Positions 731 through 20,324 of a DNA stretch of 64,000 nt are shown piece by piece (position 1 is the stretch's first letter; every line of letters begins with the position of its first letter). The position numbers and the translations under genes were made by a program. Where the stretch lies: positions 1 through 64,000 of the forward strand of contig NZ_BONI01000020.1 of assembly GCF_016862635.1 (NCBI RefSeq), in the 5' to 3' direction. The notes under the pieces are model-generated. The model had not been told where the DNA came from. It ran no database searches and was given only the letters and a program-made list of their open reading frames with translations. Origin of the DNA: Catellatospora coxensis. Its GTDB lineage: Bacteria > Actinomycetota > Actinomycetes > Mycobacteriales > Micromonosporaceae.

Positions 731-3700
731 ATGACCTCTACGACTGATGTATCAGGCAAGACGGTTCGCCAGGTCGTCGAGGAGCAGTCAGACCGCGTCT
801 TGGAGACCTACCGCATCGACAACGGACTCATCCAGGAACACGCCAACGGTGAGCGTCGCATCAACCAGGGCGGGTACGGCGAACGTCAGATCTACGAATT
901 GGTGCAGAACGGCGCCGACGAGATGCGAACGCTCGACGACGGCGAGATCCGGGTGATCCTCACCGAGCACTACCTTTACTGCGCGAACACCGGCAACCCC
1001 ATGACGCCCGAAGGCGCGGACACGATCCTGCGGATGAGTGTCTCCCGCAAACGAGGCGGCCAGATCGGGCGGTTCGGTGTGGGCGTCAAGTCAGTGCTCA
1101 GCGTCAGCGACGCCCCCGAGTTCTACAGCTCCACCGGATCGTTCGGGTTCGACCGTGACTGGGCTGCCGAGCGCATTCGCGGGGTGGCCCCCGGCGTGGC
1201 TGAGACCCCCGTGCTGCGCCTGGCCCGCCCCATCGAAACGCAGCGGGCCAGAAACGAGGACAGGATCCTCGACGAACTGCTGGCGCGAGCCGTGACGGTG
1301 GTGCGGCTGCCACTCACGCCGGGCAGCGCCGAGCGGCTCGGAGCCGACCTGCGCAGCTTTCCGCCGGAGTTTCAGCTGTTCTCTCCGCACGTGGCGCACC
1401 TGCACCTGGAGGATCGCCGTCCGGGCCGAACGCTGCACCGGGTGATGTCGGCGAAGGCCAGTCAGACCCTGCACACGCTGCAGGGGCCGGGTGAGGACGG
1501 CAAGCAGACCACCTCGGTGTGGAACGTCTTCCGGCGTACGCATCAGCCCTCGGTGAACGCTCTGCGGAGCGCAGGCGAACTCCACGACCGCCCGGAGATC
1601 GATCTGGCGTGGGCTGTGCCGCAGGGAAGCGGCGGCGGTCGCGGCACCTTCTGGGCCTACTTCCCCACCAACTACGCAACCACGCTCCGCGGCCTGCTTA
1701 ACGCACCCTGGAAGACCGGCGAAGACCGACAGAACCTGTTCGATCACAACGCGTTCAACGACGAGCTGATCGAACAGGCCGCCAACCTCGTCGTCGAATC
1801 CCTGCCGCACCTCGTTCAGCCGGCAGACCCCGGCGCCTATCTGATGCTGTTGCCAGGACGAGGGCGCGAGGCTCCGCAGTGGGCTGACGAGAGACTGACC
1901 AACGCCGTCTGGAAGGCTGCCGCGTCACGCCCGTCGATCCCCGACCAAAATGGTGACCTGCGACGACCCGATCAGTTGAATCTGACGCCGGACGGCATGA
2001 TCGACGACTGGCTGACCATGTGGTCGGGTTATGACGGCCGCCCGATGGACTGGACGCACAAGTCCATCGAAAATCGCGAACGCCGGGCCAAGGCCAACCT
2101 TATCTTTGACAAGGCCGGGCGTCCCGAGGCCTCCGTGCGCGAGTGGCTCGAGGCGCTCGTGGCAGACGGCCGTCCCGAGGGCTCCGCGCGTGCGATCCTC
2201 ATCGTGGCGGCAATGGTTCGCTGCGGACACAGCCAGGCCGGGGACGCGCTACGGGCGCGGGTCATCCTCACCGAGTCATGTGGCATGGTGGCGGCGAAGG
2301 CTGGCGACGTCTTCCGCCGCAGCGATCAGGACGGACTCGACGACGACCTGGTGTATGTCGACCCGCAGGTGACCGAGCTGGATGTCGTCGCCGCCGCACT
2401 CAACGAACTCGGAGTACGTGAGGCCAACGCCGCCGGGCGACTGGCCGCCGTCCTGGACAAGGGGTTCGCCCGCTACTTCGAGCAGGAGTGGAACGACTTC
2501 TGGAAGCTGTGCCGCAGGGTCCCGGCGCAGGAGGCCGCTGACGCGATCCGCAGCCGTATCCCCGAATGGCGTCGTCAGATCAGGGTCCGCACGTTGGACG
2601 GCCGGTACCGCAGGCCCGTCGACTGCCTGCTGCCCGGACGTGTCGTCCCAGCTGACGGCAGCCGGGATAAGGGTGTCACTGTGGACTTAAGCACCCATGT
2701 GGCCGACCGCGCGCTGCTCACCTCGCTAGGCATGTCGGACGTCCCCGTTGCCGACATTGATCCACGTCAGGACGAGTGGTTCGACCAGTACCATGTTGCG
2801 TCCGTGGAGGCCATGTGCGCTGCGCTGCCCGCCGGCGTGCCCTATCCCAAGGCGTCCAACACCATGGTCGAGGGCGTCAATCCGGCCGGACCGCTCGGAC
2901 TGCTCCCGGCTCTTAGCGAGGAGGGGCGCTGCCTCTTCCTCAATCACCTGCCGCCCGGTGGGTTGGTGCGGGACTGGACCGCCCGGGCCAATCGCCAGAC
3001 GCAGCACGCGCAGGTCGACTCACCCTTGGTCTGGATGGCCAGGAAGTACGGACGCCTGCAGACCAACGAGGGATCGGTTGCCCTCAGGTCGGCAGTCGGG
3101 CCGTCGCTCATCGAGTACCGCGACATCCTGCCGGTGGCGCAGATCGATCGTGCCATCGCCGACCTGCTGGATCTGCCGGCGACGATCACCGACATCCCGG
3201 GCGCGCTCTGGGAGCAGCTCGTCACCAGGGTCGCCACCACGGAAGAGGACGCCGTACCCGGTCGGGCGTACGCCCTGGTCCTGCGGGCCGGTGCGGCGTG
3301 GCCCGGCGGTGACACCCGCTGCCGCGTCGGCGCGAAGTGGGGCACCCGCCCCGACGACCAGATCTGCGTCACCGCGAACCCGAACGAGTATCAGACACTC
3401 GTGCGGGAGAACGTGCCGGCGCTGCTCGCTCCGACCGCCTCCGACGTCGACGCCATGATCCAAACCTGGGGCATGCGGCGATACACCGAGATGGTCAGCC
3501 GTGAACTGCGAAAGGTCGAGGAGACGGAGCCGGTGGCGGTCGTCGCCGAGTTCGCGCATCTCCGCGTCCTGCGCGGGCGCAAGGCCGACGGCTGGACCTT
3601 CGTACAGTGCAGCGAACTCGACGAGGTCACGCGGACCCCGCTGGGCATGCGGACCCACCAGCTCGACATCGCCTCCCGCGACAACGTCATCTATGTCCGG

Positions 3701-5398
3701 CAAACCACGGACAAGGCCGCGTTGCTCGGTGGAATCTCCAGGGAGCTCGGCCTGCACCTGTCGACGGCAGAGATCAATATCGTCCTGCAGCGCGCGGAGG
3801 AGGCGCGAAACAATGACATCCTCAAAGCGGTCCGCGCCGCCCGGGACAACATCGGCAAGCTGCTGCTGCTGATCGGACGTGAGCAGCTGCAGTTCGGCCT
3901 GCCCGAGGGGGTCCTCGCCTGGGAGAGGACCAACAGTGGGCAGGAGCCCGACGATCGGCGGGTGGCCGAACTCGCGTTGCACGCCCACGGCGATGGAATC
4001 CTCCGCCACCACCGCAAGGACCTCGAGAAGCGCCATGAGGCGTTGAACGTCCGCTTCACCGGTGACACCAAGTCCCGCAGAGCGGTGGCCGACCTTGGAT
4101 TCCCGGACAACTACGCGGGCGTCGGGGAGGATCCGGTGGGGGCGACAGAACAGGTGCCGGGACCGACCCCGCACTTTCCCCTCCATGACTACCAGGAGAC
4201 GCTCGCCGCCCGCATGCACCGCATGCTTATGCAGCAGCCGCCGTCACGCGCGATGCTCAGCCTGCCGACCGGTGCCGGTAAGACCCGGGTCGCCGCCGAG
4301 GCGGTCATCCGATACATCAAGGAGCACGGCCAGCGGGGCGTGCCTGGCCCCGTCCTGTGGATCGCCCAGTCGGATGAGCTGTGTGAGCAGGCGGTGCAGA
4401 GCTGGCGCTACGTCTGGGAGAAGGTCGGTGCCGCCCGCACGCGGCTGACTATCAGCCGGTTCTGGAGCACCCGCGAGGCCACCCCGGTGACTGAGAACCC
4501 TCATCTGGTCGTCGCCACGATCGACAAACTGACCGCCAACCTCGATGATCCTGCGTACGCCTGGCTGCACATGCCCGCCCTCGTCATCGTCGACGAGGCG
4601 CACGGCTCGACCTCGCCGAGCTACACCCGGGTCTTCGAGAAGTTCGGACTCACGCAGCAGCCGCTGCGCACCGCCCGGCCGCTGATCGGCCTCACCGCTA
4701 CCCCCTTCCGGGGACGCAGTGAGGATGAGACCCGTAGGCTGGTCAACCGCTACGGCGCCACCAGGCTCGACGACAACCTCTTCGAAGGTGAGCCCTACCC
4801 GGCGCTGCAGAGGATGCGCGTGCTCGCCCACGTCGACCACCATGTCCTTGAGGGCGGCACGCTGCGGCTGACCGACGAGGAGATGTCGCACATGTCCCAG
4901 CTGCACGGCGGAACCCTGCCGCCAGCCGCGGAGCAGCGCCTCGCCGAGGATCACGTGCGCAACGGCGTGCTCCTCGAAGCGCTGTGCGAACTCGATCCAG
5001 ACTGGCCCGTGCTCGTGTTCGCCACCTCCGTCAATCACGCGCGGTTCCTGTCGGTCATGCTAAATGACCGGGGCGTGAGCTCCGCGGCAGTCGATGCGCA
5101 GACTCCGACAGCCCGACGACGTCAGATCATCGACCAGTTCGCACAGCGACGTATTCGGGTGCTGACCAACTACGGCGTCCTGCACCAGGGCTTCGACGCA
5201 CCCGCCACACGAGCCGTCGTCGTGGCCCGACCCACCTACAGCCCGAACGTCTACCAGCAGATGATCGGCCGTGGTCTGCGCGGCCAGGCCAACGGTGGCA
5301 AGGAACGCTGCCTGATCCTCAACGTGCGCGACAACATCGTCAACTACGGACAGCAGCTCGCGTTCACCGCCTTCGAGAAGATGTGGGGTGGCGAATGA
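731..5398 (+). CDS. GHKL (sacsin-like) ATPase fused to SF2 DEAD/DEAH helicase
   Basis: A 1,555-aa first gene of the defence operon. The N-terminal 250 residues carry a GHKL ATP-binding fold: the N box ELVQNGADE (56-64), a degenerate CANTGNP (84-90) and the glycine lid GQIGRFGVGVKSV (110-122). This resembles the Hsp90-like domain of sacsin-type proteins. A long middle region has no motif I recognise. The C-terminal 400 residues form an SF2 helicase: Walker A LPTGAGKT (1178-1185, Lys1184), DEAH (1288-1291), a GLTATP motif III, and VLHQGFDAP and QMIGRGLRG as motifs V and VI. The ATG at 731 was chosen because AGGAG lies just upstream; the in-frame extension to 617 has no such site. The stop overlaps the next start (ATGA), so translation is probably coupled. 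I infer a role in sensing or remodelling invading DNA. Confidence 0.88.
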   Translation: MTSTTDVSGKTVRQVVEEQSDRVLETYRIDNGLIQEHANGERRINQGGYGERQIYELVQNGADEMRTLDDGEIRVILTEHYLYCANTGNPMTPEGADTILRMSVSRKRGGQIGRFGVGVKSVLSVSDAPEFYSSTGSFGFDRDWAAERIRGVAPGVAETPVLRLARPIETQRARNEDRILDELLARAVTVVRLPLTPGSAERLGADLRSFPPEFQLFSPHVAHLHLEDRRPGRTLHRVMSAKASQTLHTLQGPGEDGKQTTSVWNVFRRTHQPSVNALRSAGELHDRPEIDLAWAVPQGSGGGRGTFWAYFPTNYATTLRGLLNAPWKTGEDRQNLFDHNAFNDELIEQAANLVVESLPHLVQPADPGAYLMLLPGRGREAPQWADERLTNAVWKAAASRPSIPDQNGDLRRPDQLNLTPDGMIDDWLTMWSGYDGRPMDWTHKSIENRERRAKANLIFDKAGRPEASVREWLEALVADGRPEGSARAILIVAAMVRCGHSQAGDALRARVILTESCGMVAAKAGDVFRRSDQDGLDDDLVYVDPQVTELDVVAAALNELGVREANAAGRLAAVLDKGFARYFEQEWNDFWKLCRRVPAQEAADAIRSRIPEWRRQIRVRTLDGRYRRPVDCLLPGRVVPADGSRDKGVTVDLSTHVADRALLTSLGMSDVPVADIDPRQDEWFDQYHVASVEAMCAALPAGVPYPKASNTMVEGVNPAGPLGLLPALSEEGRCLFLNHLPPGGLVRDWTARANRQTQHAQVDSPLVWMARKYGRLQTNEGSVALRSAVGPSLIEYRDILPVAQIDRAIADLLDLPATITDIPGALWEQLVTRVATTEEDAVPGRAYALVLRAGAAWPGGDTRCRVGAKWGTRPDDQICVTANPNEYQTLVRENVPALLAPTASDVDAMIQTWGMRRYTEMVSRELRKVEETEPVAVVAEFAHLRVLRGRKADGWTFVQCSELDEVTRTPLGMRTHQLDIASRDNVIYVRQTTDKAALLGGISRELGLHLSTAEINIVLQRAEEARNNDILKAVRAARDNIGKLLLLIGREQLQFGLPEGVLAWERTNSGQEPDDRRVAELALHAHGDGILRHHRKDLEKRHEALNVRFTGDTKSRRAVADLGFPDNYAGVGEDPVGATEQVPGPTPHFPLHDYQETLAARMHRMLMQQPPSRAMLSLPTGAGKTRVAAEAVIRYIKEHGQRGVPGPVLWIAQSDELCEQAVQSWRYVWEKVGAARTRLTISRFWSTREATPVTENPHLVVATIDKLTANLDDPAYAWLHMPALVIVDEAHGSTSPSYTRVFEKFGLTQQPLRTARPLIGLTATPFRGRSEDETRRLVNRYGATRLDDNLFEGEPYPALQRMRVLAHVDHHVLEGGTLRLTDEEMSHMSQLHGGTLPPAAEQRLAEDHVRNGVLLEALCELDPDWPVLVFATSVNHARFLSVMLNDRGVSSAAVDAQTPTARRRQIIDQFAQRRIRVLTNYGVLHQGFDAPATRAVVVARPTYSPNVYQQMIGRGLRGQANGGKERCLILNVRDNIVNYGQQLAFTAFEKMWGGE

Positions 5399-7242
5399 AC
5401 ACCGCAGGCGCCGTGACCGTGGCGCTGACGGCCGAGCAGCAGGAGGCTGTCCGGCAGCCCGCCGACACCCGGCTGCTGATCATTGCAGCGGCAGGCACCG
5501 GCAAGACTCACACCCTCGTCCGGCGCCTCGAATACCTACTCGAACACGATCTGACGGCCGACGAGATCCTGGTGTTGTCCTTCTCCCGGGCGGCGGTCGG
5601 TGAGCTCGCCACACGGGCCAGGGCCTCCGCGGGCAGCAGCCGGTTCGTCGTCGCGCGCACCTTTGACGCCTGGGCGCTCGACCTGCTCGTGCACACCCGG
5701 GCGGCAGAGGACTGGCACCACAGGTCGTTTGACGAGCGCATCACGGCCGCGACGGATGTGATCATCTCGGGTCAGGCCGACGAGTACACCGCACGCGTGC
5801 GGCATGTCCTTCTCGATGAGATCCAAGATCTGGAAGGCGACCGACGCGAGCTGGTTAAGTCGCTGCTGACCTGGCTGGACTGCGGATTTACCATCGTCGG
5901 GGACCCGGCACAGGCAATCTACGGATTCCAGGTACGCGACGCATCCCGTCCTGACGACGACGGGGACATGTTCACCTGGGCCCGGGAGACCTACCCCGAT
6001 GACCTGGTCGAACTGGCCCTCACCCGCGACTTTCGGGCACGGACGCCGCGGCCCGACGGCATCCTCCGATGCGGGGAGGCGCTGCGCACAGCCGGTGACA
6101 CCGGACCCGAGCTGGCGAAGCAGATCCGCGACGAGTTCGCGGGTGCCCTCGGTGCAGGACGGCTTGCTGACATCGTCCATGGCTTTACGCACTTCGATGG
6201 CACTACGGCGATTCTTTGTCGGACCAACGGGCAGGCTCTCAACGTATCGGCCGCACTGCACCGCGCCGGAGTTGACCATCGGCTGCAGCGGCGCGCCCAC
6301 GATGAGGTCAACCCGCGTTGGCTAGTACCGCTGTTTCGTCACCACCGTGGGCTAAGCGTCGATCGGGACGCCTTCGCCGAACACACGGGGTTGACCGGCG
6401 AGCCGCTCGACGTGGCGTGGCCAGCCCTATTGACGGTCTCCCGGACGGGGAACAACCGGCTCGACCTCGGCAGGCTTCGCGCGGTCGTGGCAGCTGGCAG
6501 GCTGCCGCGCGCCGTCTGCTTCACCGATACCGCCGCGCTCACCGTGTCGTCGATGCACCGGGCGAAGGGACTCGAATACGACCGGGTGTTCCTGCTCGAG
6601 GACACTGTGCCTGAGGACTCCGACGAGATGGAGCACGCCCGGCTGCTGTACATGGCCATGACCCGGTGTCGCGACGACTTCTATCGCCTGGATCCGCTGC
6701 CTCGGTCGAAGGTCTACGTCAAGACCTGCCGACACTCCGGGCGATGGGGGCGATACCAGTTCCAGTTCGCGGGCCGCCGGCTCGGGCTGGCGCTGTCGGG
6801 TGACGACGTCAGCTCCGACCGCCCCGCGGGCACCGAGGGCTTCATGGCAGACCCGCTGGAACTCCAGGAGTACCTCATACACGAGGTCAAGCCGGGAGAT
6901 CCGGTGGTGCTGACCGTACTCGACCATATGCCTGACGACGGCCTGGCGGTGCCCGCCTACACCGTCAACCACGGCGGCAGGCCCATCGGAGTTGTTTCGC
7001 ACAGCTTCCGAATGGATCTCGCCCGGTACATGTACCGCTCTCCGGCCCGCCTACCCGATGAGGCGAGCTGGCCGAGTGCCATGACCAACTGCTGGATCGA
7101 CGATGTCGAGGCCGTTGCCGGCGGGGAGGCGCAAGGGCGCCGCGTCGGTCTGGGCGAACATGGCGTCTGGCTGGCACCGAGGTTGACCGGGCTTAGCTCC
7201 TTCCGATACCACCGCAACGATACGGAGCACGACGATGAGTAA
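5395..7242 (+). CDS. UvrD/Rep-like SF1 helicase
   Basis: A 615-aa SF1A helicase. Visible motifs are Walker A AAAGTGKT (31-38), Walker B DEIQD (141-145), motif III GDPAQAIYGF, motif V VSSMHRAKGLEYDRVF and motif VI LLYMAMTRCR. Roughly 150 residues after motif VI are not a helicase domain I recognise. The start at 5395 overlaps the upstream stop as ATGA; an in-frame ATG at 5383 is also possible. The gene overlaps drmA by 8 bp (ATGAGTAA). UvrD-like helicases translocate 3' to 5' on single-stranded DNA. The tight coupling on both sides argues that it belongs to the same system as DrmA/DrmB. A UvrD-type helicase is not part of the standard DISARM gene set, so it may be a functional substitute or an add-on module. 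Confidence 0.88.
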   Translation: MNTAGAVTVALTAEQQEAVRQPADTRLLIIAAAGTGKTHTLVRRLEYLLEHDLTADEILVLSFSRAAVGELATRARASAGSSRFVVARTFDAWALDLLVHTRAAEDWHHRSFDERITAATDVIISGQADEYTARVRHVLLDEIQDLEGDRRELVKSLLTWLDCGFTIVGDPAQAIYGFQVRDASRPDDDGDMFTWARETYPDDLVELALTRDFRARTPRPDGILRCGEALRTAGDTGPELAKQIRDEFAGALGAGRLADIVHGFTHFDGTTAILCRTNGQALNVSAALHRAGVDHRLQRRAHDEVNPRWLVPLFRHHRGLSVDRDAFAEHTGLTGEPLDVAWPALLTVSRTGNNRLDLGRLRAVVAAGRLPRAVCFTDTAALTVSSMHRAKGLEYDRVFLLEDTVPEDSDEMEHARLLYMAMTRCRDDFYRLDPLPRSKVYVKTCRHSGRWGRYQFQFAGRRLGLALSGDDVSSDRPAGTEGFMADPLELQEYLIHEVKPGDPVVLTVLDHMPDDGLAVPAYTVNHGGRPIGVVSHSFRMDLARYMYRSPARLPDEASWPSAMTNCWIDDVEAVAGGEAQGRRVGLGEHGVWLAPRLTGLSSFRYHRNDTEHDDE

Positions 7243-10200
7243 GTTCGCCGAGCATCTCGGGTTCCGGGATGAGCTGACCGACCGTCTGATCCTCGACCTG
7301 CTCGGGCCCGTTGACGGCCCGAGCGAGATCCTCGCTGATCCACCGGTCAGCACGTATCTGACCGGCGTGCTGTTCCCGCAGCGTCGCACCGAGGACGCCG
7401 TGGACGACGCTGCGGAGGCCGACCTCGACCTGGCCGGGGCTCGGATGGAAAAGGACGAGCAGCCGGACACCGGCGTGTCCATGGCCAATCAGCAGAGCCC
7501 CTCCTCCATGGGCCTGACCTTCGCCGTCGACGTACGAGCGTGCACGGAGTTCATCGTGTCGGTCGGCACCGCGTCCTACGAACCGATCGACGAGGCAGGC
7601 AACCGCGTCGCGGCGGAGATGGAGGCAGCACGCTCGACTGACGACTCGCCCATCAGGTGGCGTCGATCGGAGGTCAAGCCGGCATCCGTACCGGTCGACG
7701 TGTCCCGTCCCGGTTCGAGCGCCGTCCAGGTTGTGCCGGGACTTGAGCTACGGGTGCTCGTGCGCGCCGTCGACGACGCGCAGCACACGTCGACCGTCAC
7801 CGTCAGCCTGGTTAACAACCACCAGAGTAAGGGACCGCTCCGCGATCCCTGGTGCTTCTTCCAGTGCGTACTGACGGTGGGCACCGCCAACGGGGTCGCG
7901 GCGATCGTGGAGCAGCCAGCCGCCTCCCTGAGCGACGACGAGGCACTGACCTCCGCCATGCTCTACCGCCACGCCCCCACCTTCGCCATCGGCCACGGCT
8001 GCGCGGCGGACTGGACCGGCACCGAGAATGACAAGGGCGATGGCACTCAGGGCCGACGGGCGGTCGCGGAGATCCGCTCCTCCTTCACCCCCAGCTTCGA
8101 CGTGCTCCTGTCGGAATCGAACCCCGAGATTGACGACGCGGGCCTCGGCATGAACGACTTCGCGGAGGGGACACCCGAGCAGGTGTTGCGCTCGCTAGTG
8201 TGGCTCGTCGAGGGCTACGGCGACTGGCTTCGCGGGCGCGAGGCCGAAGCCGCCGCGATGGCCTCCTCCCGCTACGGTGCCGTCGCGCTCGACCAGCTCA
8301 AGCAATGCCGCATCGCGTACGACCGGATGAACGCCGGTGTCGACCTCCTCGCCCGGGACCCGGACGTCATGCGTGCTTTCCGGCTGGCCAACAAGGCAAT
8401 GGCGGTGCAGCGTGCCCGCACCATGCTGATGAACGGGCACACCGCGACCCTCGACCTGTCCGCTGGCCGGTGGTACCCGTTCCAGATCGGGTTCATCCTC
8501 ATCTGCCTGGCCGGCATTGCCGACCCCGACCACGACGACCGCGGCGTGGCGGACCTGCTCTGGTTCCCTACCGGCGGTGGCAAGACCGAGGCGTACCTCG
8601 GACTGATCGCGCTCACCGTGTTCCTGCGCCGGATCCGTCACGAGGAGGCGGGAGGCGGCGTGACGGTGCTGATGCGATACACCCTCCGCCTGCTGACGCT
8701 TCAGCAGTTCGAACGCGCCGCGACGCTGATCTGCGCCATGGACGATATCCGGCGCGGTGACCCCACGCTCAAAGGCGGCGAGATCTCGATCGGTATGTGG
8801 GTGGGAGCCAGTGCGACACCCAACAACCTCGGCGACGCCGAGGCCGGCTTGAAGGACCTTCGGGATGGAAAGAAGTTGCGCGAGAAGAACCCGGTGCAGC
8901 TGCGTCGCTGTCCCTGGTGCGGCATCGACATGGACCATCTCAACTACCGCGTCAACCGCGCCGACCAGCGGCTCGACGTCGGCTGCGGCAGCGCCGACTG
9001 CGCCTTCGCCGACGGCCTGCCTGTCCACCTCGTCGACGATGCGATCTACCACCACCGCCCCACGTTGATCATCGCGACCGTGGACAAGTTCGCGCAGATC
9101 ACTTGGAAGGACGAGCCGGCGGCGCTGTTCAACCGAACCGGTGCGCCGGAGGGAACACCGCCGCCGGAGCTCATCATCCAGGACGAGCTGCACCTCATCT
9201 CCGGACCGCTGGGCACGCTGGTCGGCCTGTACGAGTCGGCGTTGGACATCGCGGCCTCCCGCCCCAAGGTGATCGCGTCCACCGCGACCATTCGGCGAGC
9301 CCGCGAGCAGGGCCAGGCCCTGTTCGACCGCGAAGTGCACCAGTTCCCGCCCGCCGGACTCGACGCCCGCCACTCCTGGTTCGCTGTGGAGGCGCCACCC
9401 GAGCGCAAGCCGTCACGCCGCTATGTCGGGCTCTTCGCACCAGGCACCAGCCAGGCCACGCTGCTGGTACGGGCCTACGCCGCCCTGCTGCACCACGCGT
9501 CGACCATCGACGGCAAGGACGAAATCCGCGACGCCTACTGGACACTGATCGGCTACTTCAACAGCCTGCGTCTGCTGGCCGCCGCGGAACTGCAGGTCAA
9601 CGACGACGTGGTGGGTCGCCTCAAGCGGCTGGCCGGCGACGACCGCCCACGTGAGGTGGAGACGACGGAGCTGACCAGTCGCGCCGACGCCAGTGACATC
9701 CCCGTTCGGCTCCGGCAGCTCGACGTCCGTTATCCTGATCCGGCGGCACTCGATGTGGTGCTTGCCACCAACATGATCTCGGTGGGCGTTGACGTCAACC
9801 GGCTCGGCCTCATGACGGTGACCGGGCAGCCTCAGACCACGGCGGAGTACATCCAGGCGACCAGCCGCGTCGGCCGGCGCTATCCGGGGCTGGTCATCGT
9901 TCTCTACAACGCGGCCCGTTCGCGGGACCGGTCCCACTACGAGAACTTCCGGTCCTACCACTCCGCGCTCTACCGGCAGGTCGAGTCCACGAGCGTCACA
10001 CCGTTCTCGTCGCGCGCCCGGGACCGGGGGCTGCACGCCGCGCTGATCGGTGCGGCCCGGCTGACCCTGCCGGCTGCCCGTGCCAATGCCGACGCCGCCA
10101 TGCTCGACGACTTCATGTCCGATCTTGAAGCACTGGCCGACCGTATCGTCGACCGTGTCGCCCGGGTGGCGCCGGATGAGCGGGACGCGACAGCCGAGCA

Positions 10201-12228: not shown

Positions 12229-12271
12229 CCTGCGGGAGGACCGACGATTCGAAGGTGTGTACGAACGTCGG

Positions 12272-12301: not shown

Positions 12302-12388
12302 GGGCGAGTTGATCTCGCGTAGCATGGTCGACCTCTCGGCCACGGGCGAAACTGCCGCGACACATAACGGAGATGGTGGAACAGGACG

Positions 12389-13579
12389 ATGGGAAGCCCT
12401 AGCCTTCACAGCGTGCCGAAACCGCCACTCCGAGTCGTCGATCTTTTCGCCGGGTGTGGGGGGTTGTCTCAGGGCTTCCGGCAGTCCGGGTTTTTCACCC
12501 CCGCTGCGGCCGTCGAGTTTGATCCGGCGGCCGCAGCGACCTACGGTGCGAACTTCGGCGCCGACCACATCTATTGTGGCGACATCACCGACTGGGTCAC
12601 CGGCACCCTTCCTGAGGCCGATGTCGTCGTCGGCGGCCCGCCCTGCCAGGGCTTCTCGAACCTGGGCAAGAAGGACGAGGACGACGAACGCAACCAGCTG
12701 TGGCGCCGTTACGTCGATGCGCTGGTGAAGATCAAACCTCGCGCGTTCCTCATGGAGAACGTCGACAGATTCTGGAAGTCGCGAGAGTTCCAAGATCTGT
12801 ACGCCGAGACCGCCCCCGGTGGCCGTCTTGAGGACTATCACATCGAAGTCGATCTGGTGCGTGCCACGGACTTCGGCTCCGCACAGCTGCGCAAGCGCGT
12901 GATTGTCATCGGCACCCGTCGGGACCTGCCGATCATCCCGATCCCGGAGGCATCCACCCCGAAGCACATGTGGCGGACGGTCAAGGATGCCCTTGCCGGC
13001 GTTCCGCCGACGGTGCCGCCGGATAGGGTGGAGCTGCCCGACCGCTCACTTGCCGACGGCACGCCAGGCTGGTTCACCGCCGAGGAGTTGCACATCACCC
13101 GCAGGTACGATCCGGTGATCTCGCTGCCGCGGTTCCACGCGATTCCGCCGGGCGGCAACCGGTTCGACCTGCCCGATCACCTCAAAGCCGACTGCTGGAA
13201 GAAGCACGAGACCGGCTCGGGGGATGTCATGGGACGGCTGCGCTGGGAACAGCCCTCCGTCACGATCCGCACCGAGTTCTTCAAGCCGGAGAAGGGTCGC
13301 TACCTGCACCCGGTGGAGCATCGTGCCATCACCCATTACGAGGCGGCGCGGCTGCAGGGCTTTCAGGACGACTTCAAGTGGTGCGGCACCAAGATTCAGA
13401 TCGCCCGCCAGATCGGCAACGCCGTGCCGGTGGAACTCGCCCAGGCACTCGCCGAGCACATCGGTGCCAGTCTCACCGGGCTGCCGTCCGCTCACGCACC
13501 ACGGTCACCACGCGTTGAGCAGCCTGCGCTGTTTGCTCATGTTCCCACACCCGCAGGGGCAGCCATCCCGACTCGATGA
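12389..13579 (+). CDS. C5-cytosine DNA methyltransferase (DrmMII-like)
   Basis: A 396-aa methyltransferase with the ordered C5-MTase motifs: I, DLFAGCGGLSQGF (18-30), for S-adenosylmethionine; IV, GGPPCQGFSN with catalytic Cys86; VI, MENV near 120; VIII, PSVTIRTE; IX/X, RLQGFQ and RQIGNAVP. The target-recognition region between VIII and IX is short, so a short recognition site is likely. It would protect host DNA from the DISARM-like proteins on its left, the Z1/MORC/Vsr proteins on its right, or both. Start ATG 12389 is preceded by a GGAACAGGA stretch. Its 3' end overlaps the convergent vsr gene by 107 bp. Confidence 0.93.
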   Translation: MGSPSLHSVPKPPLRVVDLFAGCGGLSQGFRQSGFFTPAAAVEFDPAAAATYGANFGADHIYCGDITDWVTGTLPEADVVVGGPPCQGFSNLGKKDEDDERNQLWRRYVDALVKIKPRAFLMENVDRFWKSREFQDLYAETAPGGRLEDYHIEVDLVRATDFGSAQLRKRVIVIGTRRDLPIIPIPEASTPKHMWRTVKDALAGVPPTVPPDRVELPDRSLADGTPGWFTAEELHITRRYDPVISLPRFHAIPPGGNRFDLPDHLKADCWKKHETGSGDVMGRLRWEQPSVTIRTEFFKPEKGRYLHPVEHRAITHYEAARLQGFQDDFKWCGTKIQIARQIGNAVPVELAQALAEHIGASLTGLPSAHAPRSPRVEQPALFAHVPTPAGAAIPTR

Positions 13580-13910: not shown

Positions 13911-14042
13911 ATTTCGAGCGTAACGCCTGGCCCAAGATCTGATCGTGTCGCACTCACCGCCCGATCGGCTGAGCCTCCGCCGGGCAACATCCTTCGGTAA
14001 GCTCACGGCGCACCGACAGTAACCACCGGAAGGCCCCCAGAC

Positions 14043-16583
14043 GTGTCGACCGCCTTCGACCAGCAATATCAGGTGTTCCTGACGCTGGCTCAGCAGAACA
14101 CACCCGCTGCCGCGCGGGACATGCTGGAGACCCTTGCCCTGGATCCCGCCGTCATCGAACGCATCCTCGAACGATACGAGCGGGACGCCCTTGCGGTGCG
14201 CGATCTGCGGGAGCCGCGATCGGTGGTGCTGAACAACCGTTTCACCTGGTACACGGGCCCGCGCAAGGGCGATCGATGCTGGCCCGCGTTGCAGACGCTG
14301 CTGCACCGCGACGGATGGAACGAGTCGGCGCTGGAGTCACTCGACGACGCCTCGACCAAGATCCTGGCCCTGATGAGCCACCCCAGAGAGAAGGCCTTCG
14401 CCGTACGGGGCCTGGTCGTCGGATACGTGCAGTCCGGCAAGACCACCAACTTCACCTCGGTGCTCGCCAAGGCCGCCGACCGCGGCTACAAGTTGTTCAT
14501 CGTGTTGGCCGGCATCCACAACGGCCTGCGTCGGCAGACCCAGCTGCGGTTGCAGGAGCAGTTGGTCAGGCCGAACCCGTTGCTGTGGCATCAGCTCACC
14601 GACCCGGATCGTGACTTCTCGCCCCCGGCCAACGCCGCCGCGTTCTTCAACGACGCCAATCACCAGTACGTCCTGTGCGTGGTCAAGAAGAACCCCACCG
14701 TCCTGCGCAAGTTCACGCGTTGGCTCGACTCCGCGCGCGGATTCCTGGGCAACGCCCCGGCCCTCGTCATCGACGACGAGGCCGATCAGGCCACCGTGGC
14801 CACCAGGACGATCAACCCGCTGATCCGCGGGGTGCTGGACCGACTGCCCAAGGCCTGCTACGTCGGTTACACCGCCACGCCGTTCGCCAACCTGCTCATC
14901 GATCCGTCTGCGAAGGACCTCTATCCAGAACACTTCGTGGTCAACCTACCCCGCCCCGCCCGATACTTCGGCCCCGAGGTGATCTTCGGCAGGGAGGTGC
15001 AGGACCACGAGGACCCCGACGAGGTGCCCGCCGGCTACGACATGGTTCGCGTCGTACCCGATGACGACGTCGACCTGCTGCGCCCTGCCAAGGGCGAAGC
15101 CGAGGACTTCGCGCCGGTTATGACGGACAGCCTGCGTACCGCGGTGGCCTACTTCTGTATGGCCACCGCCGCCCGTACGGCGCGAGGCACCGGCAATCCA
15201 CACAGCACCATGCTCATCCACACCAGTGTGAGCACTTCGGTGCATCAGAGCTTCGACGTGCCGTTGCGACACCTGCTCCGGTCGCTTGCGCAGGAGGTGC
15301 TTGGCAACGACCTCGCCGACCTGCGCAGACTTTGGGAGAGCGAGTGCAGCCGCGTCTCGGCCGACGAGTTCGGAGAGAAGGCGGTCCCGTTCGACACGCT
15401 GCTGCCGTACCTGCCGGACGTCGTCGACCGCTGCCGCGTCATCATGGACAACTCCACCAGCAATGATCGTCTCGACTATGAGAGCGGCCCGGTCGTCGCC
15501 ATCGCGGTCGGCGGCAACACTCTGTCGCGCGGTCTGACGTTGGAGGGCCTGTGCGTCAGTTACTTCGTGCGCTCGGTGTCGGCCTATGACACCCTGCTGC
15601 AGATGGGTCGGTGGTTCGGCTTCCGTAACGGCTACGCCGACCTCCCGCGTATCTGGATGACGCGAGAGCTGCGCGAATGGTTCCGCCACCTCGCCTCCGT
15701 CGAGGCCGAGATGCGACGCGACATCGATGTCTACATGACCGAGGACAAAACACCACTCGACTTCGCCGTTCGCATCCGCACCCACCCCGCGCTGCTGGTC
15801 ACAGCGGCCGCCAAGATGAAGAGCGCGGTGAAGGCGGCCGCGGCCTACGGAGGTCAGCGGGTGCAGACACGCTACTTCCCGGTCGAGGACGCCGTATGGC
15901 TGCGGGAGAACCAGCAGCATGCGAGGCGCCTGGTCGAACTGGCCGCCACCCGCGGCTGCCGCATCGACCGCGACAACGCACGTGATCGTGTCCTGCTGCG
16001 CGACGTCCCCCACGAGCTGATCCTCGATTTCCTGGACGGCTATCAGTTCCACGACCGGTCGCAGGAGTGCGATTCAGCCCTGATCCGTGCTTACATCCGT
16101 AAGCGCAGCGAACAGCGCGCCCTGCGGCAGTGGAACATCGCCTTGATCGGCAATCCGACGTCGAATACCGAGGGCTTCGAATTCGCTCCGGGAATCGCCG
16201 TCGGTCGCGTGACCCGATCACGACTCGACCCCGACTCCCCAGTCGCGGACATCAAAACCCTGATGAGCCGGCGAGATGCCGCCGTTGACCTCACCGTCGA
16301 CCGCAGCGGCGAGCTCTCCGAGGATGCCATCAAGAAGCTTCGCCGCGCCCAACTGCCCGACCATGGGCTGCTGACCCTGTACGCGATCGACAGCCACTCG
16401 CCGACCAGGCGCCCGGATCGCCACGCGCTCCAGGCGGCCGACCACGTGATCGGCGTGGGGCTCGTGTTTCCCGAACCCCGGGAGTCCGACAGCGCGGTCG
16501 AGCGTGAGTACATCAGCGCCAACCTGGCGGGCCTGCACGTCGAGGAGGAAGACCTTGCCGGGCTGGAGACAGAGCAGAGCTGA
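14043..16583 (+). CDS. Z1-domain SF2-like helicase/ATPase
   Basis: An 846-aa Z1-domain protein. It contains Walker A GYVQSGKT (127-134, Lys133), Walker B VIDDEADQA (Asp244-Asp248), YTATPFANLLID, AVGGNTLSRGLTLEGL and the arginine-finger motif LLQMGRWFGFR. These are the hallmarks of the Z1 superfamily of SF2 helicases, known from restriction-type operons with MORC-like ATPases, Vsr nucleases and cytosine methylases. GTG 14043 follows a GAAGG sequence. A 116-bp gap separates it from the next gene, so that gene may have its own start signals. It is predicted to move along or remodel DNA; no nuclease motif is visible in it. Confidence 0.92.
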   Translation: MSTAFDQQYQVFLTLAQQNTPAAARDMLETLALDPAVIERILERYERDALAVRDLREPRSVVLNNRFTWYTGPRKGDRCWPALQTLLHRDGWNESALESLDDASTKILALMSHPREKAFAVRGLVVGYVQSGKTTNFTSVLAKAADRGYKLFIVLAGIHNGLRRQTQLRLQEQLVRPNPLLWHQLTDPDRDFSPPANAAAFFNDANHQYVLCVVKKNPTVLRKFTRWLDSARGFLGNAPALVIDDEADQATVATRTINPLIRGVLDRLPKACYVGYTATPFANLLIDPSAKDLYPEHFVVNLPRPARYFGPEVIFGREVQDHEDPDEVPAGYDMVRVVPDDDVDLLRPAKGEAEDFAPVMTDSLRTAVAYFCMATAARTARGTGNPHSTMLIHTSVSTSVHQSFDVPLRHLLRSLAQEVLGNDLADLRRLWESECSRVSADEFGEKAVPFDTLLPYLPDVVDRCRVIMDNSTSNDRLDYESGPVVAIAVGGNTLSRGLTLEGLCVSYFVRSVSAYDTLLQMGRWFGFRNGYADLPRIWMTRELREWFRHLASVEAEMRRDIDVYMTEDKTPLDFAVRIRTHPALLVTAAAKMKSAVKAAAAYGGQRVQTRYFPVEDAVWLRENQQHARRLVELAATRGCRIDRDNARDRVLLRDVPHELILDFLDGYQFHDRSQECDSALIRAYIRKRSEQRALRQWNIALIGNPTSNTEGFEFAPGIAVGRVTRSRLDPDSPVADIKTLMSRRDAAVDLTVDRSGELSEDAIKKLRRAQLPDHGLLTLYAIDSHSPTRRPDRHALQAADHVIGVGLVFPEPRESDSAVEREYISANLAGLHVEEEDLAGLETEQS

Positions 16584-16699
16584 CCACTCGTCCCGGCTCG
16601 CCCCCTTCGGCGACGGTCCCGCATGATGCACGGATCGAACGTCGCGAGCCCGCCCCACCAGCTCTCCCCAAGCCAGCCCTCTACCGCGAGGAGACCACG

Positions 16700-18667
16700 T
16701 TGACCGACATCGGTTGGCTCTCGCAGCCATACCCGCCGGAAGGCGCCACCGCGGCTGAGGGCATCCGCAACCAGCTCGGACGACCCGAGCTCGACCATCT
16801 CACGGTGTTGGTCCGCGAGGCGGCCCAGAACAGCTGGGACGCCCGAGCCGGCTCCGGCGCGGTCGACTTCCGCATCGATTTGTCCACGGTCAGCCCGGCG
16901 CACGCCGGCAACTGGCGGGACCTGCTGTTGCGCCACGCACCCCAACAGGATCAGCTTCCGCTCCGTAAGGCGATCACCAACTCCGTCATCCACACGCTGA
17001 CCGTGTCGGACCGGGGCACCACGGGCCTGGGCGGACCGACCCGTGCCGACGACGCGACCAGCAGCGTGCGGGACTTCGTCTCCTTCATCCGCAACGCCGG
17101 CGAGCCGCGGGACAAGGCCCTCGGTGGTGGCACCTACGGCTTCGGCAAGGGCATCTTCTATCTGCTCTCCAGGTCAGGCACCATCCTCGTACACACGCGC
17201 TGCCAGACGGAGACCGGATACCAGACCAGGCTGATCGGGTGCGCGCTGTGGCACAGCTACACCGCTCAGCATCCCACCGGACCGGTGCGGCACACCGGAC
17301 GGCACTGGTGGGGGCTGCGCGGAGCCGACGGCGTGGTAGAGCCGCTCGTCGATGAGGACGCGGTTAACGCCGCGAAACAACTTGGGCTGCAACAGTTCCG
17401 ACCGGACGAAACCGGCACGAGTATCGTCATCATCGACCCCTTGTACGACGAGCAGACACCGGGCGAAGCTGCGGACTACCTGGCGCAGACGATGTTGTGG
17501 CAGCTGTGGCCGAAGATGCTCGACACCCCGACCCGACCGGCCCCGATGCGCTTCGGCGTCAGTCACGACGGCGTTGAGGTTCCCGTGCCGGATCCGCGCT
17601 CGACCTCGCCGCTGGACATTTTCGTGGAGGCGTACGAAGCCTCCGTCCACCCGGATGCCACCAGGTTGTCCTGTTTCCGCCCTCGCCGTGAGCTCGGCAG
17701 CATCGGAATGGCGAGACGCCTCATGATGCCGCCGCCCGCCACCTCAGCCGCGACAACGGCGGGGGTGGACCAGGGCGTGCATCATGTCTGCCTGATGCGA
17801 CCGGCCGAGCTGGTCGTGCGCTACCTACCCGGTCCCAAACCGTTGTCCGACAAGGTTGGATACGCCGGGGTGTTTCGCGCTCACGTGTCCCTGGACGAGG
17901 TCTACGCCAAGGCCGAACCTCCGACGCACGACAACTGGATCGCCGACCAGCTTGACGGCGAGGAGCGGACCTTTATCCGTATGACGTTCCAGCGCATCCG
18001 GGAGACGCTCGACGAGTTCAACCAGGCTGGCACCTCGGTGCGCAGCAGCTCGACTGCTGTCCCGCTCGGCGCGGCCAGCAGCATGTTTTCCGGCCTCATC
18101 GCGGGGGTGTGGGGCGCTGGCGGCGCCACCGATTACGCCGGTGGACGACCCGTCGCCGTTCAGCCAGCCGCCGTGCCGGAGTCGCCGGACGGCGCTCCGG
18201 CCGGCTTCGAGGTCGGCGCACGCGATCCTGAGCCGGAGGAGCGGGGAGGAAGTCTGGACCGTTCCGGTGCCAACGACCACTGGGAACCCGCGGGCCCAGC
18301 GCTCCGTTCCACTCGATCGGTCGCACAGCGCCCGACACTTTCTTACGTCGGCGATGCCCTGCTCGATCACCTTGAAGGCGTTCCGGTGATCATCCAGACC
18401 TTCACCCTGCCGGTGTCTGGATCGCAGAGCGTACGAGCCGACCTGAACGTCGTCATCGCCGGCAGCGCCACACGCGAAACACAGGCGCCCGCCGCGGCCG
18501 ACATCCCGATCGTGCTCGGCTGGCGCAGCAACGACGGCCGCTTCATCAACAGCACCATTGCCGACCTGGAAGGCGGGGACGGCAGCATCTGGCAGGTCGT
18601 CGTGCGGCCCGCCGCCAACACGATCACCGAGATCGAGCTGCATGTCGCCGTCGGAGGTGCGCGATGA
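16700..18667 (+). CDS. MORC-like GHKL ATPase
   Basis: A 655-aa protein with an N-terminal GHKL ATPase fold: N box EAAQNSWDA (40-48), SDRGTTGL (103-110) as the D-x-G-x-x-G box, and GGGTYGFGKGIFYLL (142-156) as the ATP lid. The set matches the bacterial MORC/MutL-related ATPases of Z1-linked restriction systems. Residues 250-400 probably form the S5-like transducer. Residues around 430-540 are low in complexity and rich in Ala, Gly and Pro, suggesting a linker. The TTG start at 16700 is preceded by GAGGAG at the right distance. The stop overlaps the next start (ATGA). It is the second GHKL ATPase in the locus and is not closely similar by eye to the one at 731. Confidence 0.85.
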   Translation: MTDIGWLSQPYPPEGATAAEGIRNQLGRPELDHLTVLVREAAQNSWDARAGSGAVDFRIDLSTVSPAHAGNWRDLLLRHAPQQDQLPLRKAITNSVIHTLTVSDRGTTGLGGPTRADDATSSVRDFVSFIRNAGEPRDKALGGGTYGFGKGIFYLLSRSGTILVHTRCQTETGYQTRLIGCALWHSYTAQHPTGPVRHTGRHWWGLRGADGVVEPLVDEDAVNAAKQLGLQQFRPDETGTSIVIIDPLYDEQTPGEAADYLAQTMLWQLWPKMLDTPTRPAPMRFGVSHDGVEVPVPDPRSTSPLDIFVEAYEASVHPDATRLSCFRPRRELGSIGMARRLMMPPPATSAATTAGVDQGVHHVCLMRPAELVVRYLPGPKPLSDKVGYAGVFRAHVSLDEVYAKAEPPTHDNWIADQLDGEERTFIRMTFQRIRETLDEFNQAGTSVRSSSTAVPLGAASSMFSGLIAGVWGAGGATDYAGGRPVAVQPAAVPESPDGAPAGFEVGARDPEPEERGGSLDRSGANDHWEPAGPALRSTRSVAQRPTLSYVGDALLDHLEGVPVIIQTFTLPVSGSQSVRADLNVVIAGSATRETQAPAAADIPIVLGWRSNDGRFINSTIADLEGGDGSIWQVVVRPAANTITEIELHVAVGGAR

Positions 18668-19560
18668 GGCGTCAAATCTGGCCGTACCGCCGACCCTCGG
18701 CGGAGACCCTGTCCGCCGATACCTGGCAGCTCATCATCGACGAGGGCCCGACGGACCTGCCCGCTTCACTGCCGCACTGGGACTACCGGACCAACCTGTC
18801 CTTGAGCCGGCAGATCACCATCGACATGGACCTGCTCCGCAGCGAGGTCCGCCTGCCATCAGACGCCAAGGTTCAGGTCGCGGTGATCTGGACCGCCTCC
18901 GGATCGAACCTGCGCCAGTCGGCGGGGGCCGTGGCCATACACCGCGAGGGACGCCAGAAAGCAGACCTTGAGGTACAGCTTCCCGGCGAACTGCTGGGAG
19001 GCACCGTCACTCTGCGCACCCTGCTGACCGTCGCCGACCCCGGCACGGTAGAGGATCCGCTCGCACCGCGACTCAGCGGATCCATTCTGTGGTCCGACGA
19101 GCACAAGGTACGGCTACAGGGCGACGCGCCGCAGTTTCCCATCGCCATTGTCGACTTCTCCCGCACGACGTTTCCCGACAACGCCAGCTGGCACCTGGAA
19201 CTCGGCACCCAACTGGAAAGCGCCACCATGGGGACACTGCTGCTCTATATCAACGAACGCAGCAAGCCAACCGTGCAGGCGTTCCAGCGCGCGGCTGCGC
19301 CGAGGGCCGTCGACAAGGTGATCCTGGACGCCGTTTACGCGGACGTGGCTCGGCTGATGGTCGAGGCCGCGCTGCACCATCCCGATTTCACCGACGAATC
19401 GGCGTTCGACGAAGACAGCCTCGGTGAGACCTTTCAGAATCTGATTCACAGCCTGTTCCCCGGCCGCACCGTCGCAGACCTGCGCCAGTTGCGCGAGCAT
19501 TCGCCACACCGCCTCTCCACGCAGATCCAGGCGGCTGTTGGCGTATTTCAGGAGTCGTGA
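18664..19560 (+). CDS. uncharacterised protein coupled to the MORC-like ATPase
   Basis: A 298-aa protein I do not recognise. It is soluble, with no signal peptide or membrane segment. The first 200 residues look beta-rich (alternating hydrophobics, for example VQVAVIWTASGSN and GTVTLRTLLTVADPG). The last 90 look helical and contain ESAFDEDSLGETFQNLIHSLFPG. Overlaps of 4 bp upstream (ATGA) and 1 bp downstream (TGATG) show it is made together with its neighbours. It may be an adaptor for the GHKL ATPase; that is inference from position only. Confidence 0.75.
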   Translation: MRRQIWPYRRPSAETLSADTWQLIIDEGPTDLPASLPHWDYRTNLSLSRQITIDMDLLRSEVRLPSDAKVQVAVIWTASGSNLRQSAGAVAIHREGRQKADLEVQLPGELLGGTVTLRTLLTVADPGTVEDPLAPRLSGSILWSDEHKVRLQGDAPQFPIAIVDFSRTTFPDNASWHLELGTQLESATMGTLLLYINERSKPTVQAFQRAAAPRAVDKVILDAVYADVARLMVEAALHHPDFTDESAFDEDSLGETFQNLIHSLFPGRTVADLRQLREHSPHRLSTQIQAAVGVFQES

Positions 19561-20324
19561 TGGATCTTTTGTATCCGCGGTTGCTGCCAGCCAACGCTCG
19601 CATGATCCACGCGGAGCTGGAGCAGGTCTCGGTGTCGGACCTGGGTGGTCACTACAACCTCGAACATGTTGCAACGGTCTTCACGGCGACCGGAGGCGAT
19701 CGTGTATCGAAGCGCGTCCTCGGAGATCTCCGCACCGAACTCGTCACTGCAGCCAGGGAGAACGGGTTTCCTCATCCGCCATCGGTGCAGCAGCGCCTGT
19801 CGTTCGACAGCCGGGTCGGGCCAGCCCTCCACTCCTTGATGGATATGGTCCCGTCCGAGGCCGCGGCTGGCGACATCTGGGCCTTTATGGCGCTTGTTCT
19901 CGCACCGGATGTCGCCTACTGGAGGTTCAGACGGCCCGACGAGAAGTTCGACTCCGACCACGTTCTCGGAAGCGATGTCACCCGGCACGTCTTCGCGCGC
20001 CTGTGGTGGCGTGCGCACCTTCTACACGATCCGGCTGCAGGGCAACCGTACGCGTCATTCGATGTCGTTGGAGGGGCCGCGTTCGACCAGATCTTCGCAC
20101 GTCGACGTGCCCTGGGAGCAAGTCCTGTCTTGGTTAAAGCGATCGTTCGTGTCTGGGCCAGCGTCGACACTCACGGGGGCAATGAACGACGGCTTCTTCA
20201 GGATTTCCTCATGCGCCTTCTTCGGCTGGCTCCATTTGTGGCGTTTGAGTCCCTGACCCCCTCGCAACTCGACATCGAGCTTCAGCGAGTCGCCCGCGAC
20301 ACCATCTCGGCCGTCCGGACATAG
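19560..20324 (+). CDS. uncharacterised protein, perhaps DUF6339 family
   Basis: A 254-aa soluble protein, last gene of the Z1/MORC module. A central segment, AAAGDIWAFMALVLAPDVAYW followed by FARLWWRAHLLHD, resembles what I remember of DUF6339, a family found beside MTase and Z1 genes; I cannot confirm this without a search. No nuclease or ATPase motif is evident. The ATG at 19560 (TGATG overlap, AGGAG six bases upstream) is preferred over the GTG at 19557, which is too close to that site. Confidence 0.7.
   Translation: MDLLYPRLLPANARMIHAELEQVSVSDLGGHYNLEHVATVFTATGGDRVSKRVLGDLRTELVTAARENGFPHPPSVQQRLSFDSRVGPALHSLMDMVPSEAAAGDIWAFMALVLAPDVAYWRFRRPDEKFDSDHVLGSDVTRHVFARLWWRAHLLHDPAAGQPYASFDVVGGAAFDQIFARRRALGASPVLVKAIVRVWASVDTHGGNERRLLQDFLMRLLRLAPFVAFESLTPSQLDIELQRVARDTISAVRT

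What the first reader, a model, noticed from the sequence alone, without database searches (positions are those of the whole stretch)
731..20324. Composite defence locus joining a DISARM-like core to a Z1/MORC/Vsr restriction module around one cytosine methylase
The sequence shows DrmA and DrmB together with a C5-methylase (DISARM class 2 core), and on the other side Vsr, Z1 helicase and a MORC-like ATPase (the Iyer/Aravind restriction type). drmC (PLD nuclease) and drmE are not seen. The gene order places the methylase between the two modules. This suggests either one hybrid system or two cooperating ones that share self/non-self marking. I know both parents but not this combination as a named system.
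Basis: partly seen in the sequence, partly recalled or inferred. Interest (0 to 1): 0.9.

Follow-up and report, generated by a model that had tools for sequence, protein, structure and literature searches.

The report
DISARM core paired with MORC-type module
A ten-gene anti-virus region of an actinomycete joins the core of one known DNA-defence system to a second, restriction-like module around one DNA-marking enzyme; the first half has its own regular partner in many related bacteria, and this genome carries an unusual version of that partnership.

Summary
The genes named are real. Left: Hsp90/sacsin-like ATPase + RadD-like helicase, UvrD, DrmA, DrmB; no drmC or drmE found. Middle: C5-methylase and Vsr (minus strand). 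Right: Z1, GHKL+S5 (MORC-like) ATPase, a 298-aa protein, DUF6339.

The halves are not one fixed hybrid. Nearest relatives of each half lack the other nearby, the Z1 pairing needs five changes on the DrmA tree, and the right half matches a published putative defence system, minus its DUF4420 nuclease.

But the left half is not indifferent to MORC modules. In 397 genomes of the order, DUF6339 occurs in 8 of 21 genomes with the left core, within 16 kb of DrmA, against 0 of 46 other DrmA genomes and 16 of 376 genomes without the core. In 24 of 40 public loci a divergent ATPase-I-DUF6339 trio adjoins the core, with a C5-methylase beside the trio in 23 of 24; with one more locus they are 25 of 26 rows of a DrmA clade next to the window. 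I read it as a DISARM variant whose regular partner is a MORC trio plus one C5-methylase; here the trio was exchanged for the Z1 type. I found no description in the library searched. Function is inferred.

The parts
731..5398 (+). Gene A: Hsp90/sacsin-like GHKL ATPase (N) fused to RadD-like SF2 helicase (C), 1555 aa
   Evidence: P_loop_sacsin 64.6 bits (cut-off 50) and a RadD match below its cut-off; RadD 6jde E 5e-18; model of residues 1-1180, mean pLDDT 84, Foldseek TRAP1/Hsp90 E 9e-6, sacsin 6e-5
5395..7242 (+). Gene B: UvrD-like SF1 helicase (GajB-like); frame open from GTG 5383
   Evidence: Pfam UvrD-helicase 96 bits; GajB models
7235..10423 (+). Gene C: DrmA, YprA-family helicase
   Evidence: NCBIfam DISARM_DrmAS over cut-off; 7s9v
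10420..12228 (+). Gene D: DrmB (DUF1998/MZB)
   Evidence: DrmB_fam over cut-off; MZB 33.1 bits; 7s9v_B
12389..13579 (+). Gene E: C5-cytosine DNA methylase
   Evidence: Pfam DNA_methylase; best PADLOC models DruM2 and MTase_II; 65% to the methylase beside Z1 in L051
13473..13901 (-). Gene F: Vsr mismatch endonuclease; start codon uncertain; overlaps gene E tail to tail
   Evidence: Pfam Vsr 71.3 bits; frame read
14043..16583 (+). Gene G: Z1 SF2 helicase (MzaC-like), motif DTLLQMGRWFG
   Evidence: Pfam Z1; PADLOC MzaC 331 bits; motif as in Iyer 2008
16700..18667 (+). Gene H: MORC/paraMORC-like GHKL+S5 ATPase; TTG start by comparison with homologues
   Evidence: GHKL motif patterns; weak PDC-M33A match; fold match to GHKL+S5 ATPases, low TM-scores
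18664..19560 (+). Gene I: 298-aa protein of unknown fold
   Evidence: tblastn match after H in 20 of 20 Z1 stretches; no significant family
19557..20324 (+). Gene J: DUF6339 protein
   Evidence: Pfam PF19866 42.6 bits, cut-off 23.2; tblastn match after I in 20 of 20 Z1 stretches

Best explanation
The locus is a DISARM-type restriction system of a subtype whose core is gene A - UvrD - DrmA - DrmB and whose regular partners are one C5-methylase and a MORC-like ATPase / gene I / DUF6339 trio. In this genome the usual divergent trio is not seen and a Z1-type trio, with its methylase, Vsr and Z1, stands downstream instead; that module's own PD-(D/E)XK nuclease (DUF4420) is absent. Inferred working: the methylase marks host DNA; DrmAB, gated as in solved DISARM, loads on unmethylated DNA with a 5' single strand and translocates; gene A, UvrD and Z1 unwind or remodel; the MORC-like ATPase clamps or loops DNA and gates the effector; Vsr repairs T:G mismatches left by deaminated 5-methylcytosine and is not the effector. 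The effector nuclease is unidentified: drmC and DUF4420 are both missing, so a host nuclease or an unrecognised domain in I, J or the UvrD C-terminus would be needed. Shown: gene content, order, linkage counts, phylogeny, GHKL motif patterns in A and H. Inferred: every biochemical step and that both halves use one methylase.
For: A is found in 21 of 397 genomes, 22 places, each on the contig of a DrmA or, in one case, cut by a contig end. DUF6339 in 8 of 21 of these versus 16 of 376 other genomes (Fisher p 6e-6) and 0 of 46 other DrmA genomes (p 3e-5), each within 16 kb of DrmA. 27 of 40 genomes behind public loci have exactly one DUF6339; 24 are beside the core as part of a divergent trio, with a C5-methylase match in the DUF6339-side stretch of 23 of 24. 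The 25 trio rows need 2 changes on the DrmA tree and fill all but one place of a clade (SH-aLRT 92); window plus L091 are its sister (99). The own genome has one DUF6339 and one DrmA match. No methylase or divergent trio in the 730 bases upstream of A.
Against: The closest DrmA (L091, 69%) has no trio in its flank and no DUF6339 in its genome; it carries a kinase, an N6-methylase and a UvrD instead. 13 of 40 core genomes have no DUF6339 match, so the trio is not obligatory. One of the 8 order genomes (G139) is under the family's cut-off, and in G230 the trio lies about 14 kb from drmB beside a ResIII-type helicase of its own, so it may be a mere neighbour. The closest Z1 modules of the order sample are in genomes without a DrmA match. 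Window H, I, J belong to the Z1 type (H 50% to L051, 24% to the divergent type), so a functional swap is a guess. The Fisher tests treat genomes as independent. The contig edge hides the left flank.
Confidence: 0.5

Rival explanations
1. Two independent systems that happen to be neighbours in a defence island: a DISARM variant and a Z1/MORC restriction system, each able to work alone. The middle methylase belongs to the Z1 module; the DISARM part uses another methylase or none.
For: Nearest relatives of each half lack the other nearby; two genomes of one genus (G069, G076) carry the Z1 module and the DISARM core separately at what looks like one hotspot, judged by eye from near-identical flanking proteins. 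Methylase and Vsr are 65% and 68% identical to those of the Z1-only locus L051. Z1 pairings differ in orientation: downstream on the same strand in the window, G067, G139, G221, G225; divergent in G324, G319, G197. The genome-level association is weaker for Z1 alone (7 of 21 vs 48 of 376, p 0.016).
Against: Linkage is higher for this DrmA subtype (8 of 21 vs 0 of 46 for DUF6339), which general island clustering does not predict; 24 trio loci keep one divergent arrangement, in a clade spanning several families.
Confidence: 0.35
2. A DISARM variant in working order beside a decaying Z1 module. The Z1 system lost its DUF4420 nuclease and only its methylase, Vsr and perhaps the trio still serve, the methylase acting as DrmMII for the DISARM core.
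For: DUF4420 found in 19 of 22 Z1-trio loci compared, absent in the window; no match in the own genome while the same search found it in 5 of 9 other genomes, including 4 where it was known. L108 has core + Vsr + C5-methylase and no DUF6339 match in its genome.
Against: Z1, H, I and J are full-length, with H/I and I/J reading frames overlapping and GHKL motif patterns in H. G067 also lacks DUF4420 and is also paired with DrmA, but the third case, G385, has no DrmA match and what looks by eye like a broken remnant.
Confidence: 0.15

Closest known systems
DISARM (Ofir 2018, recalled; Bravo 2022, PMC9142583, passages read)
   Same: DrmA and DrmB over curated cut-offs, a C5-methylase in the locus, closest solved structure is DrmAB
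   Different: No drmC, drmD or drmE found; adds a sacsin-like ATPase/RadD helicase and UvrD in front of drmA; associates with MORC-like trios
Putative Z1 / PD-(D/E)XK / C5-methylase defence system, Type I (Miller et al. 2022, PMC9523054)
   Same: Z1 protein, cytosine methylase, three additional genes, association with repair endonucleases, as its text describes
   Different: The core PD-(D/E)XK protein is missing here and a DISARM core stands in front; that its three extra genes are H-I-J is inferred, as I could not see its figure, and its text writes DUF4220 where I find DUF4420
Third type of MORC/paraMORC restriction operon (Iyer et al. 2008, PMC2292703)
   Same: SFII helicase with DThhQXuRhFG motif, GHKL+S5 ATPase, cytosine methylase, Vsr
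   Different: No RE-fold nuclease gene recognised in the window; DrmA/DrmB are not mentioned in the parts read
Mza (mzaABCDE)
   Same: Z1 protein resembles MzaC; related loci carry a MzaD-like DUF4420 protein
   Different: No AIPR-type MzaE or MzaD hit here; MzaC NCBIfam score 407 against cut-off 1500
ARMADA Type II (Bell et al. 2025, PMC12458937)
   Same: YprA-family helicase with a GajB-like UvrD; ARMADA-II-like genes follow this core in G178, G262 and G328
   Different: DrmA/DrmB split and DISARM-like; no BrxHII-like or PglX-like gene of its own in the window

Membership tests
DISARM | DrmA helicase | tested here: met
   982 bits, cut-off 950
DISARM | DrmB DUF1998 protein adjacent to DrmA | tested here: met
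   474 bits, cut-off 240; frames overlap
DISARM | Linked methylase (DrmMI or DrmMII) | tested here: met
   C5-methylase 160 bases after drmB; it scores higher on DruM2 and MTase_II models than on DrmMII
DISARM | PLD nuclease DrmC (typical, but reported non-essential, PMC9142583 passages) | tested here: not met
   No DrmC among the hits listed for ten proteins (best 25 per protein); Vsr was not in that call
DISARM | drmD or drmE of named classes | tested here: not met
   None among the hits listed (best 25 per protein); a DrmD-like gene occurs after this core in another genome
Miller 2022 Type I | Z1 protein and C5-methylase | tested here: met
Miller 2022 Type I | PD-(D/E)XK core protein | tested here: not met
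   No match in the locus or the genome, with working positive controls
Iyer 2008 MORC/paraMORC type-3 operon | GHKL+S5 ATPase beside Z1-type helicase | tested here: met
   Motif patterns and fold, Z1 motif
Iyer 2008 MORC/paraMORC type-3 operon | RE-fold nuclease gene | tested here: not met
   No DUF4420; an unrecognised RE fold in I or J is not excluded
Iyer 2008 MORC family proper | GhXhhpXXRhl motif in the S5 domain | not tested
   Not searched; I call gene H MORC-like only
ARMADA Type II | BrxHII-like helicase + PglX-like methylase + fused YprA helicase | tested here: not met
   Not among the window proteins; only a 16-bit BrxHI|BrxHII match of gene A's helicase part
Any of these as a working anti-phage system | Protection against phage | not testable with these tools
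   No experiment possible

The most novel reading that the evidence does not exclude
Actinobacteria carry a distinct immune system in which a DISARM DrmAB motor, a sacsin/Hsp90-like ATPase-helicase, UvrD and a MORC ATPase trio act as one machine on a single C5-methylase mark, with the MORC trio exchangeable between lineages; the window is a natural exchange in which a Z1-type trio replaced the resident one and lost its own nuclease because the DISARM side supplies the attack.
Probability: 0.3. Interest if true: 0.8.

Novelty: new variant of a known kind. Interest (0 to 1): 0.6.

Why it matters
The molecular role of bacterial MORCs is called poorly understood in a passage read (PMC8011034), and DISARM's nuclease DrmC is reported as non-essential, leaving open what cuts the DNA (PMC9142583 passages). 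A conserved locus in cultured Streptomyces that pairs DrmAB with a MORC-like trio and one methylase makes both questions testable: does the MORC-like ATPase gate a DISARM motor, and what cuts the DNA? It also suggests that DISARM and MORC-type restriction modules exchange parts.

Tried and rejected
Rejected: a fixed DISARM-Z1 hybrid (five changes on the tree; halves mostly apart). Rejected: Vsr as the restriction nuclease by default; it lies tail to tail with the methylase and accompanies C5-methylases in both kinds of locus, but this was not tested. Considered: loss of DUF4420 as a mark of fusion with DISARM; only 2 of 3 cases fit (window, G067; G385 has no DrmA match), and 4 of the 6 DrmA-linked Z1 loci compared keep it, so I do not claim it.

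No result: profile searches of J and I against solved structures gave nothing significant. I versus its counterpart in the divergent trio: P 6e-4, probability 29%, suggestive only. The H model is poor beyond residue 310. Rfam found nothing. Repeats gave no clear island ends. The promoter scan around the methylase gave one weak site. I, J and full-length A were not folded.

Limits: in the order searches with proteins at most two first-look candidates per genome were scored, so those counts are lower bounds. PF19866 misses divergent J proteins: of the 25 genomes with a close Z1 (E below 1e-170) it found J in 19. Of the other six, G319, G355 and G301 have J by tblastn (L069, L067, L070); G197, G270 and G384 were not looked at. 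Counting all six as having J gives 8 of 21 vs 22 of 376 (p 4e-5) and 8 of 21 vs 2 of 46 (p 9e-4). L091's genome has two DUF4420 matches elsewhere; it was not searched for Z1. The tree is a quick one with SH-aLRT support and a midpoint root; L042 (G319) and L041 (G197), L037 (G230) and L049 (G293) were labelled 'none seen' on it although Z1 or DUF6339 lies nearby, which could add changes.
Full report
What is there. The window is base 1-64000 of contig C20 of a 9.35 Mb genome. It is of the same family as G319, whose contig length and position equal those of the Micromonospora trifolii record found, so probably Micromonosporaceae. From 731 to 20324 lie nine plus-strand genes and one minus-strand gene, at about 65-68% G+C against 68-76% beyond 22 kb. 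Genes A-B-C-D overlap head to tail, as do H-I-J: two tight gene groups with a methylase, an antisense Vsr and Z1 between. The named genes are confirmed by curated models: DrmA, DrmB, C5-methylase, Z1, DUF6339, Vsr. The first two genes, not named in the reason given, are an Hsp90/sacsin-like ATPase fused to a RadD-like helicase and a UvrD helicase.

The left four genes are a unit. DrmA was found at E 1e-50 or better in 67 of 397 genomes of the order. The first 900 residues of gene A were found in 21 of 397 genomes, 22 places: by coordinates 20 places lie within about 8 kb of a DrmA, one (G067) about 30 kb away on the same contig, and one (G221) is a fragment on another contig while the rest of A opens the DrmA contig. 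In the stretches drawn, UvrD stands between A and DrmA. All 21 genomes are among the 67. Gene A thus separates this DrmA subtype from the other 46 DrmA genomes.

The right genes are a unit. Z1 was found in 55 of 397 genomes. In all 20 stretches around close Z1 relatives, H, I and J follow Z1. Between Z1 and H a DUF4420 nuclease was found in 19 of 22 loci compared, window included; it is missing in the window and G067, and what looks by eye like a broken remnant is left in G385. A search with working positive controls finds no DUF4420 in the own genome. This right half fits the third operon type of Iyer et al. 2008 (PMC2292703; abstract and two of three parts of the introduction read) and, as far as its text tells, the putative Type I defence system of Miller et al. 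2022 (PMC9523054; one section and passages read).

Are the halves together more often than chance? Mostly they are apart: of 55 Z1 genomes 8 have Z1 within 20 kb of any DrmA, 6 of them of the A type; of 21 A-type genomes 15 have no Z1 that near. The four closest Z1 relatives of the order sample (61-63%) are in genomes with no DrmA match; the closest DrmA relative (L091, 69%) has no Z1 within 10 kb. In one genus the two halves sit separately at what looks like the same hotspot (G069 and G076). Yet the rate is higher for A-type DrmA than for other DrmA (6 of 21 vs 2 of 46, p 0.009).

The stronger signal is DUF6339. Over the 67 DrmA genomes it was found in 8, all A-type: 8 of 21 versus 0 of 46; one of the eight, G139, is below the family's cut-off but is supported by tblastn. 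Over all 397 genomes: 24, i.e. 8 of 21 A-type and 16 of 376 others, p 6e-6. All eight lie within 16 kb of DrmA by coordinates. Three of the eight (G076, G230, G293) have no Z1 match, so DUF6339, not Z1, is the common partner. The weakest case is G230, where the trio has a ResIII-type helicase of its own beside it. The model misses some J proteins; counting all six close-Z1 genomes without a hit as having J, the figures are 8 of 21 vs 22 of 376 and 8 of 21 vs 2 of 46 (p 4e-5 and 9e-4). These tests treat genomes as independent.

The public scan with the DrmA alignment returned 80 loci (more existed). In 24 of them (L092-L096, L098-L107, L109-L114, L121, L125, L129) a MORC-like gene stands divergently just upstream of A. 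I searched the genomes of 40 of the 80 loci (the 39 with gene A in the stretch, plus L122) for DUF6339: 27 have exactly one. In 23 of the 24 the DUF6339 stretch overlaps the DrmA locus by sequence, the 24th (L093) adjoins it by coordinates; L122 is a Z1-type case that overlaps too; for L097 and L119 it is not adjacent. A C5-methylase match lies in the DUF6339-side stretch of 23 of the 24; the exception, L112, has one after drmB. So the usual order is methylase > < J < I < H | A > UvrD > DrmA > DrmB >, sometimes with Vsr. The one divergent H tested (L071) carries an N-terminal HTH domain.

On the DrmA tree (59 rows) the 25 divergent-trio rows (the 24 plus G076) need two changes: they are 25 of the 26 rows of a clade (SH-aLRT 92), the other being L097. 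The window and L091 are sister to it (99). The Z1-trio label needs five changes for five rows, as many as it has rows, so repeated gain is the simplest account; fewer gains with more losses are not excluded.

Working model. By homology to solved DrmAB (PMC9142583, passages read), DrmAB is held off by a trigger loop, binds DNA with a 5' overhang, and its ATPase is stimulated more by unmethylated than by 5-methylcytosine DNA. That fits a C5-methylase as the self mark. MORC-like ATPases were proposed to loop DNA between recognition and cleavage (PMC2292703). Both GHKL ATPases here keep their motif patterns. No nuclease other than Vsr was recognised; Vsr most plausibly is the repair partner of the methylase. 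These steps are inference.

Is the methylase shared? It is the only one seen in the locus; the 730 visible bases upstream of A hold neither a methylase nor a divergent trio, and the genome has no second DUF6339 match. Sequence affinity ties the methylase to Z1 loci (65% to L051), but similar methylases also stand beside the core alone (61% in L127). Sharing is plausible, not shown; the contig edge leaves room for another methylase, and the genome was not searched for other C5-methylases.

In print? Searches of the held library listed no paper that, in what I read of it, describes gene A-UvrD-DrmA-DrmB or its link to a MORC trio; most listed papers were seen as titles and abstract beginnings only. 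The preprint on YprA helicases (PMC12458937; abstract, first of three parts of the results, figure legends and passages read) mentions many uncharacterised DISARM-like classes without naming this one in what I read; its supplement could not be read here.

Verdict: observation confirmed; hybrid interpretation partly supported and re-read as a DISARM variant with an exchangeable MORC trio.

Noticed in passing
L033, L036, L117, L119, L120, L123, L133 after drmB: A DrmD/BrxHII-like helicase and a large N6-methylase follow this core (in L036 after Vsr and two methylases), and in G178, G262 and G328 also a YprA-like helicase with MZB domain and a UvrD: the gene order of ARMADA Type II behind a DISARM core (one representative of each gene was scanned).
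   Followed up: partly
L091:15149-21031: In the closest relative (Paractinoplanes maris) the core is followed by a Ser/Thr kinase with TPRs, an N6-methylase and a UvrD, instead of a trio.
   Followed up: partly
L031 and L051: Two genomes of one genus carry the DISARM core and the Z1 module beside the same flanking genes, with Vsr next to a regulator-like gene in both (judged by eye from protein starts).
   Followed up: partly
L063:10926-12295: A ParA-like ATPase gene (label by eye) and a small gene on the opposite strand lie between drmB and Z1 in G067.
   Followed up: no
L038:13031-16144: In G067 the UvrD protein has an extra N-terminal stretch of about 430 aa of unknown nature.
   Followed up: no
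L054, about 4836-5433: G385 has only what looks like a broken remnant of DUF4420 between Z1 and H.
   Followed up: partly
window 20447-21301, minus strand: HTH-domain regulator just beyond the locus, in a stretch of low G+C (about 60%) before the higher-G+C region.
   Followed up: no
L199 (Tsukamurella plasmid): A plasmid copy of UvrD-DrmA-DrmB followed by genes in ARMADA-like order, with a C5-methylase gene and a 464-aa gene where gene A would stand (annotations as given).
   Followed up: no
L045 and L059: Z1 modules of G221 and G324 with DUF4420 89% identical stand beside clearly different A-type DrmA genes and in different orientation.
   Followed up: no
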